DNA of 64,000 nucleotides, taken from contig NZ_FNIA01000001.1 of NCBI RefSeq assembly GCF_900103505.1, positions 1 through 64,000 of the forward strand, in the 5' to 3' direction. The DNA comes from Haloarchaeobius iranensis (GTDB lineage Archaea > Halobacteriota > Halobacteria > Halobacteriales > Natrialbaceae). The notes beneath the pieces were generated by a model. It worked only from the letters and a program-made list of their open reading frames with translations, was not told the origin of the DNA and ran no database searches. Shown piece after piece: positions 6,270 to 58,991 of this stretch; position 1 is the first letter of the stretch; the number at the start of each line of letters is the position of its first letter. A program made the position numbers and the translations under genes.

Positions 6270-7783
6270 CAGTGGACCACCTCCTCGGTGCGGAGGAAAT
6301 CAAGGTCGACGAGCGTCCCGTGGACGTCGCGGATGTCCTCGAAGCCGTGGGTGAGCATCAGCAGCCGCTCCAGCGCGAGCCCCCAGGCCATCACGTCGCA
6401 GTCGACGCCGAGCGGGCGGAGCACCTCCTCGCGGAAGATGCCCGAGTTGCCGATCTCGACGATCTCGCCCGTCTCGGGGTGCTCGCCGAACAGCTCGAAG
6501 CTCGGCTCCGTGTACGGGTTGTAGTGGGGCTTGAACTGCAGGTCGGTGATGCCGAACTGCTCGTAGAACTCCGTGAACGTGCCCATCAGGTCACGCACCG
6601 AGAGGTCCTCGGCCATCACCCAGCCCTCGATCTGGAAGAACTCCAGCAGGTGGGTCGCGTCGAGCGTGTCGTTCCGGTACACCTTCTCCACGCTGAAGTA
6701 CCGCTGTGGCGGCTCCAGCTCGCCCTGGGCGTGCCCGGAGAGGTAGCGCATCGACAGCGACGTGGTGTGCCCGCGCAGGTCGACGCCGCGAGCCACGTCC
6801 TCGGTCCACGGCGAGTGGTAGCCGTCGCCGTCCGCGCCGACGCCGTTGCGGTGGGCGTCCTCGACCCGGTCGACGAGCTCCGCGGGGAGGTCCTGCATCG
6901 GCGGCACGTCCAGCGCGAACTGGTCCCAGTGCGTGCGCGCCGGGTGGTCCTGTGGCATGAACAGACAGTCGTTGATCCAGAACTCCGCGTCCGCGTGCGG
7001 GCCCTCCATCTCCTGGAAGCCCATCCCGACAAGCACGTCCTTCACGCGGTCCGCGGTCTGGCGCAGGATGTGCTTCTTGCCGCCGTAGCGCGTCTCAGCG
7101 TCGGCCTCGACGTTGTACTCGGTGAACTCGACGTCCTGCCACTCGCCGCTCGTGAGCAGTTCGGGCGTGAGCTGGCCGACCGTCTCGCTCTCCTCGACGC
7201 CCTCCATCAGCGCCGTCACGCCCTCGTCGGTCAGCGTGACTAGCCGCTCGGTCGACTCCGGAACGGTGACGAGGTCGCGGCTCACGAGCTGCTCGCGCAC
7301 CGACGCCTCGATGTCGCCGGCGTCCACGCGCCCGTCGGCGAGTGCTGCCAGCACCGTCGCCTCCCCGTCCGCGTCGGGGTCGGCGTCCGGGTCCGCCGTC
7401 AGCTCGCCCGACTCGATGCTGCCGTAGCCCTTCCGGGCGTAGTTCGCCAGCGCGATGTCGACCGCGCCGCCTTCGAGGCCGGACGCACCGATGACCTGGC
7501 CCATCGAGACCGCGCCGTCGTCGGCCCCGGCCTCGACCGCGGCCCGGTACAGCCGGACCTCCGGCAGCCCCGACTCGACGTACGTCTCGCCCTCGTCGGT
7601 GAGTTCGACTCGCTCCTCGGTTCGCTCCTCGACCGTGAGGAGGCCGCTATCCGCCAGCTCGAACACCGCGCCGACGACCGTCTCGGGCTTCTCCCCGAGC
7701 TCGTCGGCCAGCGCCGTCACCGACGTCGCGTCGGTGGCGCTCGCGGCTTCGAGCACCGAAACCTGTGTCCCTGGTAGTTGCAT
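6269..7783 (-). CDS. pheS: phenylalanyl-tRNA synthetase alpha subunit
   Basis: A 504-residue class II synthetase catalytic subunit. The first 200 residues form winged-helix DNA/RNA-binding-type modules, as in archaeal and eukaryotic PheS. The catalytic core follows: motif 1 region with HPARTHWDQF, motif 2 region RYFSVEKVYRNDTLDATHLLEFFQIEGW, and motif 3 with MAWGLALERLLML near the C-terminus. PheS and PheT (1-base overlap) form one operon. The promoter lies in the gene-poor stretch beyond 7783, where AATAGCTAAC at about 7811-7820 on the minus strand is a weak TATA candidate. Confidence 0.97.
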   Translation of the reverse strand: MQLPGTQVSVLEAASATDATSVTALADELGEKPETVVGAVFELADSGLLTVEERTEERVELTDEGETYVESGLPEVRLYRAAVEAGADDGAVSMGQVIGASGLEGGAVDIALANYARKGYGSIESGELTADPDADPDADGEATVLAALADGRVDAGDIEASVREQLVSRDLVTVPESTERLVTLTDEGVTALMEGVEESETVGQLTPELLTSGEWQDVEFTEYNVEADAETRYGGKKHILRQTADRVKDVLVGMGFQEMEGPHADAEFWINDCLFMPQDHPARTHWDQFALDVPPMQDLPAELVDRVEDAHRNGVGADGDGYHSPWTEDVARGVDLRGHTTSLSMRYLSGHAQGELEPPQRYFSVEKVYRNDTLDATHLLEFFQIEGWVMAEDLSVRDLMGTFTEFYEQFGITDLQFKPHYNPYTEPSFELFGEHPETGEIVEIGNSGIFREEVLRPLGVDCDVMAWGLALERLLMLTHGFEDIRDVHGTLVDLDFLRTEEVVH

Positions 7784-8214
7784 TGGTAGTGGATGCTCGC
7801 GTCTCTCAGTTAGCTATTCCGGACGAGTGCGCGATTTCGTCGGCCGACAGCGGGTTCGTCGCCGTCTGCCGAGTCCGCCGCGCTCACGCCGACGCAAAAA
7901 AGCCGAACCCCAGGGTGTCGCGACGACCGCGCTTGCCTGCGATGCCTCGATGGCGGGATCCGGCTGCCATACCTGTGCTATTCTCTTGCCCCGGCAAAAG
8001 CCTTCGGTCGACGTGTGAGTTCGTGTGTGGTAGTCGCGCAGTACTTTGGGTTCGAGGTAACGACGACGACCAGAAACCCCCCTCCCGCTCGACCCGCCGC
8101 GACTTGCTGCGCTCCGCATCCGTCGTATGAGCGTCTGCTCGCGGGGCGCGCGCCACCCGGTTGGTCAGTCATCGCTGTGAACTCGAAAACTGCGGGGCGT
8201 GAGAACGAACGTGG
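7784..8214. other. intergenic region between orc1-like gene and pheS
   Basis: These 431 bases have no supportable gene. On the minus strand a run of six T follows GGGGTTCGGC at about 7895-7908 and could end the orc1-like transcript. A short inverted repeat (TTGCC / GGCAA) lies at about 7986-7998. I looked for a tRNA, SRP RNA or RNase P RNA and saw none. Its place next to an Orc1/Cdc6 gene raises the question of a replication origin, but I see no convincing repeated origin boxes or AT-rich unwinding element. Confidence 0.5.
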
Positions 8215-9345
8215 TTACAGCCGGTCGAGCACGGCCTCGCGGTCGTACTCCAGCGTCAGCTCTCGCGAACGCCCCCGACCCTCGACCTCGGCGTACTCGG
8301 TCTCGACGATGCCGAGGTCGTCGAGCTTGTTGACGATCTCGGAGTACCGGGTGTAGCCGAGGCCGGTCCGCTCGTGGAACGTCTCGTAGACGTCGCCGGC
8401 GCGTTCTCCCTCGCACTCGGCGATGACCTCGACGAGCGCGAGTTCGGACTCGCTCAGGCCCTCCAGCGAGCGCCGGAGGTGGACGTACTTCGACTTCTCG
8501 TAGGCGGCTTTGACGTCCTCCCTCTCGACAGTTCGGGAGGCGCGCATCTCGGCGTGGAGGCCGGCCCGGCGGAGCAGGTCGATGCCGACGCGCAGGTCGC
8601 CGGTCTCGGCGGTGAAGTCGGCGACGAGGTCGAGGATCGGTGCCGGAATCACGTCGTCCTGGAAGCCGCGCTTGACGCGCTCGCGGAGTATCTCGACGAT
8701 CTCGCCCTCGTCGTACGGTGGGAAGTAGATGTCCTCGGGGCGGAAGACGGACTGCACGCGGGAGTCGAGCTCGTCCATCACGTTCAGGTTCGGGTCCGAG
8801 GAGACGACGATGACGCCGATGCGCGCACCGGAGTGCTCCTCGTGAGCCCGGAGCAGCGAGTACAGCGTGTCGGAGGCCTCGCTCTCGTAGAACAGGTAGT
8901 TCACGTCGTCGAGCGCGACGACGAGCACCTCGTCCTCGTCGACGAGGCGTTCGGTCACCTGCGAGAACAGCTTCTTGAACGAGATACCCGAGGCGGGCGG
9001 CTCGTAGTCGAACATCCCCTCGAACAGCCGGGAGAACACCGAGTACCGCGTCGCGTTCATCTGGCAGTTCACCCGGACGGTTCGCACGTCGTTGGTCTCC
9101 GCCTGGAGCTCCGAGAAGAGCTTCTGGACGGCCGTGGTCTTCCCGGTGCCGGGCGGACCGCGGACGACGGCGTTGAGCGGACGGGACCCTCTGACGGCGG
9201 GACGAAGGACGTACTGCAGGCTCTGGGTCTGCGTCTCCCGATGTTTGAACGTCTCGGGGACGTAGTCGATCTCGAACACCCGCTCGTTGCGGAAGACCGA
9301 CTCGTCCCACCCCAACATTCCCTCGTCTGGGGGGTCCTCAGCCAT
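8215..9345 (-). CDS. Orc1/Cdc6 family replication protein (divergent)
   Basis: A 376-residue AAA+ protein of the archaeal initiator family. Walker A GPPGTGKT lies at residues 63-70, the Walker B region VVALDDVNYLF at about 143-153, and sensor-like segments follow. A C-terminal winged helix (about 300-376: ERTGLGYTRYSEIVNKLDDLGIVETE) would bind DNA. Walker B reads LDDVN instead of the usual LDEID type, so the catalytic Glu is Asp. The start at 9345 (MAEDPP) is the first ATG; a GTG 12 nt upstream is possible. Haloarchaea carry many Orc1/Cdc6 paralogs and not all sit at origins. No origin is evident beside this one. Confidence 0.9.
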   Translation of the reverse strand: MAEDPPDEGMLGWDESVFRNERVFEIDYVPETFKHRETQTQSLQYVLRPAVRGSRPLNAVVRGPPGTGKTTAVQKLFSELQAETNDVRTVRVNCQMNATRYSVFSRLFEGMFDYEPPASGISFKKLFSQVTERLVDEDEVLVVALDDVNYLFYESEASDTLYSLLRAHEEHSGARIGVIVVSSDPNLNVMDELDSRVQSVFRPEDIYFPPYDEGEIVEILRERVKRGFQDDVIPAPILDLVADFTAETGDLRVGIDLLRRAGLHAEMRASRTVEREDVKAAYEKSKYVHLRRSLEGLSESELALVEVIAECEGERAGDVYETFHERTGLGYTRYSEIVNKLDDLGIVETEYAEVEGRGRSRELTLEYDREAVLDRL

Positions 9346-11624: not shown

Positions 11625-12052
11625 TGCAGGGGTCTATCCGGGGCGAGGCGAAAAAGCTCCCGCCGTCGAGCGCCCGGTATCGTCGCGGCTCCTGCGAGCG
11701 AGGGGCGCGGTTTGGAGCGAACGGAAACTAGAACGTGAACGAATAGGCACGTCGAGTGTCGTGCGTGGAATAGTTAAAATATTATATTAAAAAAAATAAA
11801 TTTCTGTCCAACCCCAGCGTTGACAGTTGTTTTAGATATCACCATTGGCTCCAAAAAGATTTCTTCTATTTCTAGACCCATGGATTATCAAACTTCGACG
11901 GGAACGTGTTCAATATTTATATTCCAATTAGTAGCAATTATAACCATAGCAAACCCCCACTATCTATATTCTTAAGTACCAACCCAAAATACAATATCGT
12001 TTAGATATATTAAATTGTCCAATATATAAAATTTTATATTTTGTGGTTCAGA
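11625..12052. other. AT-rich intergenic island
   Basis: The first 140 bases are GC-rich and featureless. From about 11765 to 12052 the composition switches abruptly to strongly AT-rich, with runs such as TTAAAATATTATATTAAAAAAAA and several TATA-like elements, unlike anything else in the window. The switch coincides with the upstream region of the Tat-exported trio. No gene is visible inside. Confidence 0.7.
12023..12030 (+). promoter_or_regulatory. TATA element of the Tat-exported trio
   Basis: TATATAAA is centred 27 nt before the ATG at 12053, which fits a leaderless transcript and supports that start over the in-frame ATG at 12071. Confidence 0.6.
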
Positions 12053-13051
12053 ATGACCATCCGCCCTCTCATGGATTCGAATAGAAGACGATTCATCCAG
12101 GCAATGGTTGCCACCGGCCTGGCAGTGACTGGACTCAGTTTCAGTAGTACCGCGACGAGAACTACCAGGGAGAATCCGACGCTGCTCGTCGGGTCTCTCT
12201 CAGACCCAATCAGCCAGTCGGAACGGCTCGAGGCGCGGAATTCCGTGCTCGAATCGACGGATTCCTCCGGTTCTGCCGTTGGATACGCGTCCAACGATGA
12301 ACCGGTCGTCGCCTATGCGTTCGGTCTCAAAGATGGCGTGCCACAGGAATTCGTCGGAACCGCGAAAACTGAGGCCGAAGCGACCCATCAGATACGGGAA
12401 GCCCGGTCGTTCGTCGAAGAGTTCGACAGGCGAACTGTCTTGAACGCATCGGATAGTCCGGTTTCCGTCGAGACCGACGGCCAGTGGTCGTGGCTGTCGA
12501 ACACCTACTCGTCAGCTGAGGGCAAGTACGGCTCCGTCGACTTCACAGCCCACTTCTGGCGACTGGATGTCGACACCGGGTTCACCGAAATCGCAACCGT
12601 AACCGAGGTCAAGGCTGGGGCTTGGCAGGGCTTTACCGACATTCCGTCCTACGCGAAACACGACTGGAACGACGGCACCGTCACCGCTCACTCACCGCAT
12701 AGTTTTGACTCAGACGGAGCCGGCGAGACGTGGGAATCCAGCATGTACGTCGCCGCAGACGGCACTCAGCACGACATCGACTGGAACTACCAGACGAAGT
12801 GGAAGACGATCGAGCAGCAGTACAGTTCCAGTGAAATACAGAACAAGACCGCAACACGGTGGGAACTCAAAGATCGCTGGTCCAGCAACTTCTCCCCGGT
12901 TCACGCGACAGGCAGTATCTGTTCATTCGCGGACGAACCCAATAACGCCGAGGTAGTCGGTACAGTCAGTCACGACACCAAATTCCGCACCGGGTTCAGG
13001 ACCGACCGTGTTCAGGACAACATCGAATTAGAATATTTCAACTACGAATAA
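12053..13051 (+). CDS. Tat-exported protein of unknown function (trio member A)
   Basis: I do not recognise this 332-residue protein. It begins with a clear twin-arginine signal (DSNRRRFIQAMVATGLAVTG, at residues 8-27). Residues about 40-140 are mixed and acidic (YAFGLKDGVPQEFVGTAKTE). The rest is rich in aromatic and Ser/Thr residues with alternating strand-like stretches (VDFTAHFWRLDV, MYVAADGTQHDIDWNYQTKW), which suggests a beta-rich secreted domain. It has no lipobox, no C-terminal sorting signal and only one Cys. The stop overlaps the next start by one base (TAATG), so A and B are translationally coupled. The upstream region is unusually AT-rich, which may mean transfer. Confidence 0.8.
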   Translation: MTIRPLMDSNRRRFIQAMVATGLAVTGLSFSSTATRTTRENPTLLVGSLSDPISQSERLEARNSVLESTDSSGSAVGYASNDEPVVAYAFGLKDGVPQEFVGTAKTEAEATHQIREARSFVEEFDRRTVLNASDSPVSVETDGQWSWLSNTYSSAEGKYGSVDFTAHFWRLDVDTGFTEIATVTEVKAGAWQGFTDIPSYAKHDWNDGTVTAHSPHSFDSDGAGETWESSMYVAADGTQHDIDWNYQTKWKTIEQQYSSSEIQNKTATRWELKDRWSSNFSPVHATGSICSFADEPNNAEVVGTVSHDTKFRTGFRTDRVQDNIELEYFNYE

Positions 13052-14313
13052 TGAGTGACGAGAACGAGGCCCCGGAGTTGCAGCGTCGAACCGCCCTCTC
13101 AGCAATCGCCGCGACGTCGAGTGCCGCCCTCGTCGGGACGGCGACCGCCAGCCGCGGAGTCACCAGCCGAACCGGCGTTGGTCAGGGCGACGTCGCCGTC
13201 TACGTCGACGAGGCGCTCTCGGTCTCCCTGCCCGGACGAGCCGTCACCACCGTTTCCTCGCTGGACGAGGCCGAGTTCGTCCTCCTGGCCACGGAGCCCG
13301 GCCTGGACCGGAGCGCGGTCCTCGACCAGCTGGCCGCCGGCACCCCGGTCGGGATGGCCGGTAACGACGCGAACGGTGGCCTGATCCGCTTGCTCTACGA
13401 CGCCGACGAGGAGGTGGAGGCGATCTTCGACGCCGGGACGCCCCTGCCGGACGACGTGCCGGTCTCCGTCACACTCGGCTACTTCGGCCCGTCCCCCTTC
13501 GCGGTCATCGACCCGGTCGAGGACATCTCACAGATGCGTGAGTTCAGTCTCGAAGCGGTGACCGGGCGGCGTCTCGAGACCACTATCAGCACGCAGTACG
13601 GCGGCCCATCGGCGAACTTCGACCCTATCGAGGGCCCCTGCAGTGCGCTCGGACGGACCGCGTTCCCGGACGACTTCAACTGTCTCGGTGGCTACCAGAT
13701 CGACTTCGCCTCGTGTCCGCACGGTGACGTTCGCGTCCGTGTCTTCTGTGGCTACGTCGACGACACCGACGGTAACCGGTACTTCGGCATCGACCAGCAA
13801 ATAGATCTCTGGCCAGGGACCTCGAACGGCCGCAATGTCGGTGATGCCTGCGGGACGGACTGGCAGAACAACGAACTCGTTGCCTCTAACGACTACATAA
13901 ATATCTCAAACGCTTCGGCCGAGGTAATTAAATCCAAGCCCCAGTCGACGGAGAGTACTGTCAGCAACGGTACGGAGCTCTCGCTGGGTGTATCCGGAGA
14001 TGCGGGCGGGATCGGTGGCGAAGCGGCCGCGGCCTGGTCGAGAACCGTCACCGTCAGCGGTGTAAATGTGACCCGTTCCGACGGCAACGACTACTCTGAG
14101 CACACCGTGGAGTACAACTCCGGCGGCGACGTGACATCGTCCGCAAAGTTTGACCGGACTGATCTCATCCAGAGCGTAGGCACCGACCTCGGACAGGTGT
14201 ACATGAGCTCCGACATCGATGTCGAGTTCAAAAAGCCCGGAGGTATCTTGCCGTGGGATGACCCATCCTACGAGACCTTCACCGAGAGCGGCGTCCTGAA
14301 CTTCACCGTCTAA
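13051..14313 (+). CDS. Tat-exported protein of unknown function (trio member B)
   Basis: A 420-residue unrecognised protein, coupled to member A. A twin-arginine-type signal (LQRRTALSAIAATSSAAL) occupies about residues 10-32. Residues about 45-150 look like a compact alpha/beta domain (VAVYVDEALSVSLPG, VLDQLAAGTPVGMAGND). The C-terminal 260 residues carry a Cys-rich patch (CSALGRTAFPDDFNCLGGY, ASCPH, VFCGYVDD) and long alternating strands (WSRTVTVSGVNVTRSDGN, HTVEYNSGGDV). The segment RYFGIDQQIDLWPG is echoed in member C (TYLGVEQQLTVWPG), so B and C appear to share a domain. Function unknown; secreted beta-structure is inference. Confidence 0.8.
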   Translation: MSDENEAPELQRRTALSAIAATSSAALVGTATASRGVTSRTGVGQGDVAVYVDEALSVSLPGRAVTTVSSLDEAEFVLLATEPGLDRSAVLDQLAAGTPVGMAGNDANGGLIRLLYDADEEVEAIFDAGTPLPDDVPVSVTLGYFGPSPFAVIDPVEDISQMREFSLEAVTGRRLETTISTQYGGPSANFDPIEGPCSALGRTAFPDDFNCLGGYQIDFASCPHGDVRVRVFCGYVDDTDGNRYFGIDQQIDLWPGTSNGRNVGDACGTDWQNNELVASNDYINISNASAEVIKSKPQSTESTVSNGTELSLGVSGDAGGIGGEAAAAWSRTVTVSGVNVTRSDGNDYSEHTVEYNSGGDVTSSAKFDRTDLIQSVGTDLGQVYMSSDIDVEFKKPGGILPWDDPSYETFTESGVLNFTV

Positions 14314-14441
14314 TCGCCGCCGGATGACTCCGCGGGGGTTCCTGGCCGCAGCGTACGTCCCCCACGAAGTATTTCAACCTGGAACAGAAATTACCAATAT
14401 CATCCCAACCGCCGTTGTTCACACCCATCCTCCGAACATAT

Positions 14442-15299
14442 ATGCCCGACGACAGTACACTTCTTACGACCCGACGAAAGCTCCTCGCTGGTAGCGCAGT
14501 CACCGCGGGTGCGGTCGCGCTCGGCGTCCGAGCGTCCGACGATGCCCCGCCCCGCTGTCGGGGAGACACCGATCCCCCACACTCCCGCATCGGACCGACG
14601 TACAGTACGAGCGGCTGTGGGCCCGCCTACACATTCGGAGAGGGCTGGGAGTGCCTCGTGAACGACAGGGCCGACCTCGGCTCGCGCCCAGACGCCGAGG
14701 CCACCCTGGCCACTGCGGTCGCACGCTACGCCGGTGAGTCCACGACGTACCTCGGGGTCGAACAGCAGCTCACCGTCTGGCCCGGGCCGGCCCGCAAACG
14801 AATCGCCGACCCGACCAGCGACTGGCCGCTCGACGCGTTCTCGCTCACCACGGAGCTCGGTGGCGACGCCGCGGATTCGACTCGTCTCGTCGCCCGGAAC
14901 CCCGGAACGACGGGCTGCCGGACGACCTTCAGGACCTGGCTCGGGATCGGGGTCGTCGGCACCGCCGCCGACGCGTACGACGACCTTCCGCCCTGGCGCG
15001 GGAGCTACCGCTTCGACAAAGCGACGGTCACGCACACCCCGACCGAGACGGACCGACCCGGCTCGACCCTCGATGTGCGCGTGTACGGCGATGACTTCCG
15101 CCGGACCAATCGGACGGTCCGCTACTCGGCGCTGTTCGAGGCCACCGACGCAGCGGTCGAGACGGTCGAGGTCGACTCCGAACTCGTCGTCGACCTCGCG
15201 AAATCGGAGCTTGGGGGCCTCCGGACGGAGCGGAAGACCATGACCGACGGGGCGACCGTCACGGCCACGGTATCGAACTCGGACGCGGGCGAGCAGTGA
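14442..15299 (+). CDS. Tat-exported protein of unknown function (trio member C)
   Basis: A 285-residue unrecognised protein. The ATG at 14442 gives a Tat signal (LLTTRRKLLAGSAVTAGAVAL); an in-frame TTG 27 nt upstream would push the signal inwards and is less likely. Paired Cys (in PPRCRGD, TSGCGPAY and WECLVND) suggest disulfides outside the cell. The segment TYLGVEQQLTVWPG matches member B, and the C-terminal halves of both are strand-rich with a similar layout, so C looks like a shorter paralog lacking the N-terminal alpha/beta domain of B. It lies 128 bp after B and may have its own promoter. Function unknown. Confidence 0.78.
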   Translation: MPDDSTLLTTRRKLLAGSAVTAGAVALGVRASDDAPPRCRGDTDPPHSRIGPTYSTSGCGPAYTFGEGWECLVNDRADLGSRPDAEATLATAVARYAGESTTYLGVEQQLTVWPGPARKRIADPTSDWPLDAFSLTTELGGDAADSTRLVARNPGTTGCRTTFRTWLGIGVVGTAADAYDDLPPWRGSYRFDKATVTHTPTETDRPGSTLDVRVYGDDFRRTNRTVRYSALFEATDAAVETVEVDSELVVDLAKSELGGLRTERKTMTDGATVTATVSNSDAGEQ

Positions 15300-15352
15300 C
15301 GACCCGTCCCGGCCGGCGGTCACCGCGGGCCGTTCACACCCCGCCGGGACCG

Positions 15353-57748: not shown

Positions 57749-57926
57749 CTATTCGGTCTGTTGTGTTCCACGAGGTATCAAAGTTGACCACTCCGGCCTC
57801 GGACCCGATGGCTGTACGTCACCGCGACACGCCAGCGCCAATTGTTGCCGCAACCAGACACACCGGAATGTCAGATGGATACGACTTGGAGGACGGTCCG
57901 TCTACCGTGAGCCAAGAGCCCCCACG

Positions 57927-58025
57927 ATGTCGAGACAGACACGGGAACCAGCGTTCGAGCAGACACGAATCGAACCACGATGGCAGGACCGGTGGGACGG
58001 CGCCGACGTCTTCCGCGCCCCGGAC
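57927..58025 (+). pseudogene. fossil N-terminus of a second (bacterial-type) LeuRS
   Basis: The ATG at 57927 opens a frame reading MSRQTREPAFEQTRIEPRWQ, then RWDGADVFRAPDDAT, about 33 residues. This is the N-terminal pattern of bacterial-type leucyl-tRNA synthetases, which some haloarchaea carry in addition to the archaeal enzyme (ERW-x-E-W-x-x-ADVFRAPDD). Right after this the frame turns to Cys/Arg-rich nonsense and a different protein continues in another frame. The HIGH motif and the rest are gone, so this is a deletion remnant. Confidence 0.55.
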
Positions 58026-58372
58026 GACGCGACCTGCTCGTGCTCGTCGAACTGGAGATGCGCCGTGCCGACCCGGCGAACAACACCGTGAAGCTGCTCC
58101 GTTCGCTGGAGACGGGCGGCCTCGACGAGGACGACACGGTCGTCGTCTGCCAGGCGTTCAGCGCGTACTACGACCTCGCCACCGGCGGGGTGAGCACGAA
58201 ACGCGAGAACGCGGCGTTCGTCGGGCGACTCGCGGCCGACGCGTTCGACCGCGTGACGTTCCACGCCGTCGAGTTCCCGGTCGAACCGCCGAAACGCGGG
58301 GCGTCGTGGCCGGACGCCTGGCCCGACGCGCTCGCGACGACCGTCGACGCGGTCATCGAGGCGACGCCGTAG
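57980..58372 (+). CDS. unknown protein, possibly truncated at its start
   Basis: A 130-residue frame from the ATG at 57980. The first 18 residues (Arg-rich) overlap the LeuRS fossil in another frame and are probably not native. From about DLLVLVELEMRRADPANNTV onwards the sequence has normal haloarchaeal composition: LLRSLETGGLDEDDTVVVCQAF, then SAYYDLATGG and FVGRLAADAFDRVTFHAVEFP, ending AVIEATP. An internal ATG at about 58058 (MRRADPANNTVK) could be the real start. I do not recognise the family. It seems to be the downstream partner of a deletion that removed most of the LeuRS gene. Confidence 0.5.
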   Translation: MAGPVGRRRRLPRPGRRDLLVLVELEMRRADPANNTVKLLRSLETGGLDEDDTVVVCQAFSAYYDLATGGVSTKRENAAFVGRLAADAFDRVTFHAVEFPVEPPKRGASWPDAWPDALATTVDAVIEATP

Positions 58373-58397
58373 CGACGGGTACCGATTTGGGTCCCGG

Positions 58398-58802
58398 TCA
58401 GTCGATGTCGATCCGGTGGCCCTCCTCGACGTCGGCCTTCGGCGCGGTGACGGTGAGCGTCCCGTTCGTGTAGCTCGCGCTGATGGCGTCCTCGTCGACG
58501 GCCTCGGGGAGACGGATGCTGCGGCTGACCGACGTCTGGCGCTCGCGGTGGACGTAGTGGTCGTCGCCCTCTTCCTCGGTCTCCTCCTCGCGGCTCGCGT
58601 CGATGGTGATGGTCCCATCTGCGAAGGTGAGCTCGATGTCCCCGGTGTCGTAGCCCGGGACGTCCGCGACGATCTCGTACTCGTCGCCGTGGTCCTGCAT
58701 GTCGACCGGCACCGATTCGACCGTCGGCATGCCGCGGTGCTCGAACTGCCGGCCCATACGGTCGAACATCTCCTCGAGTTCTTCGAACGGATTTCGTCGC
58801 AT
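58398..58802 (-). CDS. Hsp20/alpha-crystallin small heat-shock protein
   Basis: A 134-residue small heat-shock protein. A short N-terminal arm (RRNPFEELEEMFDRMGRQFE) is followed by the alpha-crystallin domain (residues about 28-120: DEYEIVADVPGYDTGDIELTFADGTI, RSIRLPEAVDEDAISASYTNGTLTVTAP). The C-terminus ends in HRIDID. It holds unfolding proteins in an ATP-independent way. GTTTAAGTG on the minus strand at about 58829-58839 is the TATA candidate. Confidence 0.94.
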   Translation of the reverse strand: MRRNPFEELEEMFDRMGRQFEHRGMPTVESVPVDMQDHGDEYEIVADVPGYDTGDIELTFADGTITIDASREEETEEEGDDHYVHRERQTSVSRSIRLPEAVDEDAISASYTNGTLTVTAPKADVEEGHRIDID

Positions 58803-58991
58803 TGTATCCGACAGATACGGCGGGTGGACACTTAAACTCCTCGCGTAAGCGGGTCGCTCGGTGGGGGGCGAACAGGCGGACGGTCAGCCGGACGGCGCGT
58901 GTCCGCACACCCGCGAGACGCCGCCCGTCGGTACTCAGCGCACGGCGGGACTGGCCCCGGCTTCGGGTAAAAGAGGACGGGTGGGTCGCGG

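What the first reader, a model, noticed from the sequence alone, without database searches (positions are those of the whole stretch)
12053..15299. Cassette of three Tat-exported proteins with no recognisable family
Three consecutive genes each begin with a twin-arginine signal and none matches a family I know. The first two are coupled by a TAATG overlap, the third follows after 128 bp. All look strand-rich and aromatic/Ser/Thr-rich after the signal, with Cys in the second and third that may form disulfides outside the cell. Co-export of two coupled partners plus a paralog suggests a secreted complex, for example an adhesin, a toxin-like or pore-forming assembly, or a surface sensor. The toxin idea is inference only. 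This is my best candidate for an undescribed system in the window.
Basis: partly seen in the sequence, partly recalled or inferred. Interest (0 to 1): 0.75.

Follow-up and report, generated by a model that had tools for sequence, protein, structure and literature searches.

The report
Unnamed archaeal family of exported proteins
Three neighbouring genes in a salt-loving archaeon encode exported proteins that all belong to one large family with no name in curated databases, spread through haloarchaea and methanogens; its gene neighbourhoods suggest secreted antimicrobial weapons, possibly membrane-piercing, but no activity or structure has been shown.

Summary
A (12053-13051), B (13051-14313) and C (14442-15299) exist as described: twin-arginine signals, a TAATG overlap, a 128-bp gap, and no Pfam, NCBIfam, PHROG or PADLOC family. 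They are not three orphans. All three carry one ~200-residue C-terminal domain (CTD). Held-out profiles find A (1.8e-18) and B (3.8e-18); C is tied in mainly through B (8e-7). The CTD occurs in 45 of 391 sampled Halobacteria genomes, in methanogens, and twice more in this genome. A-B-C order was not seen elsewhere, but an adjacent B-A pair and other tandem pairs recur. The cassette is accessory: same-genus genomes lack it between the same flanking genes. Elsewhere the family gene is often followed by a membrane-anchored partner (PQQ-propeller lipoprotein, other lipoprotein, or methanogen TM protein), resembling effector-immunity modules; the window has no such partner. The CTD centre is a serine/threonine-rich, charge-poor hairpin-like stretch, as in aerolysin-type pore formers, but the only PDB match (Cry78Aa, E=0.018) did not reproduce and AlphaFold2 failed. 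Best reading: secreted antagonistic, possibly pore-forming, effectors (about 0.4). Family membership is near certain for A and B, likely for C.

The parts
11686..15336 (.). Accessory insert at the place of an HD-domain-like gene, between a MutS-like gene and an APH-like kinase gene
   Evidence: Flank homology to same-genus genomes ends near 11685 and resumes at 15337; in G267 only 70 bp lie between, in G270 and G353 a ~630-bp stretch with an HD-like gene
11686..12052 (.). AT-rich leader upstream of A (about 36-41% GC against 68% for the window)
12053..13051 (+). Gene A: Tat signal, A-type N-terminal domain, CTD (from 12476)
   Evidence: held-out full-length profile 1.8e-18
12476..13048 (+). 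CTD of A; central segment not charge-poor (22% charged)
13051..14313 (+). Gene B: Tat signal, B-type N-terminal domain, CTD (from 13663)
   Evidence: held-out CTD profile 3.8e-18
13663..14310 (+). CTD of B; GC3 0.75 against 0.87 for the N-terminal half, suggesting a mosaic gene
13966..14046 (+). Putative amphipathic hairpin of B (NGTELSLGVSGDAGGIGGEAAAAWSRT), 15% charged
14442..15299 (+). Gene C: Tat signal, short linker, diverged CTD (from 14637), no N-terminal domain
   Evidence: held-out CTD profile only 0.0073

Best explanation
A, B and C are diverged members of one archaeal family of exported proteins (Tat in haloarchaea, Sec-type signals in methanogens) built from a variable N-terminal domain and a shared ~200-residue beta-rich CTD. 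The family most likely works as secreted antagonistic effectors against other microbes that act at the target membrane, with a central serine/threonine-rich, charge-poor hairpin of the CTD as candidate inserting element. Producers often carry a membrane-anchored protein next to the gene that may give immunity. In the window B keeps the most hairpin-like segment; A and C would be partner, regulatory or decaying subunits. Shown here by sequence: the common family, RR signals, tandem arrangement, accessory status, recurring neighbours elsewhere. Inferred: toxicity, immunity, membrane insertion, oligomers.
For: Family. Neighbours: all 12 propeller genes in the haloarchaeal loci adjoin a family gene, 11 of them directly downstream on the same strand; a predicted lipoprotein or TM protein follows about 24 of 70 family genes against 35 of 283 background genes (p about 6e-5); a separate membrane-protein family does so in methanogens. 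Several unrelated anchored partner families behind one secreted family is the usual look of effector-immunity loci (general knowledge). Hairpin: least charged window of the CTD (7% against 23%; column-permutation p<0.0002, block-shuffle p 0.0004) and rich in Ser/Thr. Lead: a 2011 survey listed a haloarchaeal and methanogen proteins as aerolysin-like (PMC3110756). Accessory, GC-poor, mosaic.
Against: No activity data. The window has no homologue of the propeller or of the second neighbour family, and about two thirds of the family genes have no recognised anchored neighbour. The propeller-effector distance correlation depends on the closest pair (r 0.83, falling to 0.28, p 0.07, without it). 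The Cry78Aa match vanished with a broader profile. A and C are charged in the hairpin. Alternation of hydrophobicity in the hairpin does not exceed the 99th percentile of shuffles. No relatives in the phage set or IMG/VR scans.
Confidence: 0.4

Rival explanations
1. Exported binding proteins: the CTD is a beta-sandwich that binds a surface sugar, S-layer glycan or ion, and the lipoprotein propeller is its dock at the cell surface.
For: beta-rich, aromatic-containing CTD; the partner is a lipoprotein scaffold, and PQQ-type propellers are common scaffolds; some members sit in shared chromosomal neighbourhoods
Against: no match to a binding-module family; the charge-poor hairpin is unusual for a soluble halophilic sandwich; exchange of partners and the presence-absence pattern fit conflict genes better
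Confidence: 0.3
2. A, B and C form a multi-subunit secreted assembly in which all are needed.
For: A-B translational coupling; tandem diverged paralogues in several other loci
Against: many genomes have a single family gene; the within-pair difference in hairpin charge is not significant (p 0.10); order not conserved
Confidence: 0.25
3. Remnants: an acquired island of decaying family genes without current function.
For: accessory site; low GC3; C lacks the N-terminal domain; related genes are split in other genomes
Against: three intact ORFs with signals and coupling
Confidence: 0.15

Closest known systems
Aerolysin-type beta-pore-forming proteins (e.g. Cry78Aa, PDB 7Y78/7Y79)
   Same: variable N-terminal domain plus beta-rich C-terminal domain; Ser/Thr-rich hairpin stretch in the middle of the domain; weak profile match at that stretch (E 0.018)
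   Different: match not reproduced with a broader alignment, no Pfam match, no structure, no sign of a lectin trefoil, archaeal with anchored neighbours
Halocin H4 and the HmHapP precursor of Haloferax mediterranei
   Same: exported haloarchaeal proteins; HmHapP mediates antagonism among haloarchaea (PMC12893001)
   Different: halocin H4 (sequence recalled from memory) does not match the CTD profile; HmHapP acts through a short helical N-terminus, and its relation to this family was not tested
Effector-immunity (polymorphic toxin) loci
   Same: secreted protein followed by an exchangeable membrane-anchored neighbour; mosaic and accessory
   Different: immunity is inferred only; neighbour absent in the window and in most loci

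Membership tests
The CTD family defined here | A and B detected by profiles built without the window | tested here: met
   B 3.8e-18 on the CTD profile; A 1.8e-18 on the full-length profile, but only 1.3 on the CTD-only profile
The CTD family defined here | C detected by a profile built without the window | tested here: inconclusive
   0.0073 held out; pairwise B-C 8e-7
Tat substrates | twin arginine plus hydrophobic stretch near the N-terminus | tested here: met
   sequence; Tat models match several relatives, in the window only C and just under the cut-off
Aerolysin-type pore formers | sequence or structural match to the aerolysin domain | tested here: inconclusive
   PDB profile E 0.018, not reproduced; AF2 pLDDT 34 and 30
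Aerolysin-type pore formers | amphipathic, Ser/Thr-rich, charge-poor insertion hairpin | tested here: inconclusive
   charge-poor and Ser/Thr-rich family-wide; weaker in B, absent in A and C; alternation not above shuffles
Aerolysin-type pore formers | oligomeric pore formation | not testable with these tools
   needs experiment
Halocin H4 | sequence homology | tested here: not met
   no match to the CTD profile even at E 1000, using a recalled sequence
Effector-immunity loci | anchored immunity-like neighbour in the window | tested here: not met
   no homologue of the propeller or second neighbour family among the window ORFs
Effector-immunity loci | toxicity neutralised by the neighbour | not testable with these tools
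   needs experiment

The most novel reading that the evidence does not exclude
A previously unnamed archaeal family of secreted pore-forming effectors with interchangeable membrane-anchored immunity proteins, shared by haloarchaea and methanogens, with tandem two-component versions.
Probability: 0.27. Interest if true: 0.85.

Novelty: new variant of a known kind. Interest (0 to 1): 0.6.

Why it matters
Known archaeal protein weapons are few. A family found in roughly one in ten sampled haloarchaeal genomes and in methanogens, often with an anchored neighbour and without a database name, gives a concrete, testable candidate set. If it turns out to be only a binding family, naming it still removes a block of 'hypothetical' exported proteins.

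Tried and rejected
Halocin H4 homology (recalled sequence). Plasmid and phage collections: only Halorussus vallis plasmid NZ_CP100002. IMG/VR scans: no relatives. Genome-contig scans gave two loci, L131 Natrarchaeobius chitinivorans and L132. A leukocidin-type resemblance was a first idea; no Pfam or PDB support. Within-pair hairpin asymmetry: not significant. Direct repeats at the insert borders: none convincing.

Full report
Observation. The three ORFs, their coordinates, the TAATG overlap and the 128-bp gap are as stated. Pfam, NCBIfam, PHROGs and PADLOC give no family; only Tat-signal models match, in relatives and marginally in C.

One family. B and C share their C-terminal halves (BLASTP 8e-7). 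B has full-length relatives in other haloarchaeal families, and in G031 a B homologue is directly followed by an A homologue, in reversed order. Profile searches show that A, B and C all carry the same CTD: 45 of 391 sampled Halobacteria genomes have it at E<=0.01, with two further copies in this genome at C67 and C17. A profile built without the window finds B at 3.8e-18 and, with the A-type N-terminal domain included, A at 1.8e-18; C is weak (0.0073) and rests mainly on B. The CTD reaches other classes of the phylum, methanogens by my reading of the loci, where Sec-type signals replace Tat. Conserved motifs are W, PYG, MePG, WrN, HDWd, dP.gt, SvSlg, SWSYtqPdv, D.Ss, AkW, fePGS.

Architecture. 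Two N-terminal domain types precede the CTD, A-type (LRGS..DPI..) and B-type. B-type also occurs alone on ~190-residue lipoproteins, one of them right behind a B gene (L023). In G143, G195, G319 and G221 the A-type domain and the CTD are separate adjoining or overlapping ORFs, with a signal only on the first.

Accessory locus. In three same-genus genomes the MutS-like and APH-like flanking genes are present without A-B-C: G267 has 70 bp between the homologous flanks, G270 and G353 have about 630 bp with an HD-domain-like gene (my reading of the sequence). The window insert is 11686-15336. GC3 is 0.70 for A, 0.87 and 0.75 for the halves of B, 0.85 for C, against a window mean of 0.91.

Neighbours. 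In the haloarchaeal loci all 12 propeller genes (nine of them checked and PQQ_2 by Pfam) adjoin a family gene, 11 directly downstream on the same strand; all 12 have a twin arginine and a lipobox-like GC. Four genes of one subfamily are followed by another exported or membrane protein family, in one case on the opposite strand. In methanogens a third membrane-protein family follows. Counting any predicted lipoprotein or TM neighbour, about 24 of 70 against 35 of 283 (p about 6e-5); the gene calls are mechanical and the loci partly related, so p values are approximate. Distances of effector and propeller correlate (r 0.83, p 0.003), but this hinges on one close pair. Immunity is therefore an inference.

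Membrane hypothesis. The CTD centre is a two-strand-like stretch, Ser/Thr-rich and poor in charge (7% against 23% overall; block-shuffle p 0.0004). Papers on aerolysin-type proteins describe an alternating insertion hairpin and Ser/Thr patches (PMC3110756, PMC9363482). [quoted passage not shown]), but it disappeared with a broader alignment, and the alternation score does not exceed shuffles. A 2011 survey placed a Halogeometricum and methanogen proteins in the aerolysin superfamily; whether they are this family was not tested. In the window B is moderately charge-poor there (15%), A and C are not (22%, 21%).

Conclusion. Certain or nearly so: one widespread unnamed exported family, tandem copies, accessory locus. 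Likely: a role in conflict between microbes. Open: fold, pore formation, partner function, and why this cassette lacks the anchored neighbour.

Noticed in passing
L113, L114, L116, L123: N-terminal domain and CTD are split into adjacent or overlapping ORFs at the same domain border, with no signal on the CTD ORF.
   Followed up: partly
L023:5345-5917; L022:5655-6230: B-type N-terminal domain occurs alone as ~190-residue lipoproteins, one directly behind a B gene.
   Followed up: partly
L092:5943-7151 and 7205-8359 (own genome, contig C17): Another family gene of this genome with a propeller-like lipoprotein directly downstream.
   Followed up: partly
L056, L058, L122: Family genes broken into two ORFs, probably by frameshift or stop.
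   Followed up: no
window 57902-58831, - strand: Another ORF with GC3 as low as A (0.70).
   Followed up: no
L024, L025, L026: A further protein type: B-like N-terminal domain with a different C-terminal half.
   Followed up: no
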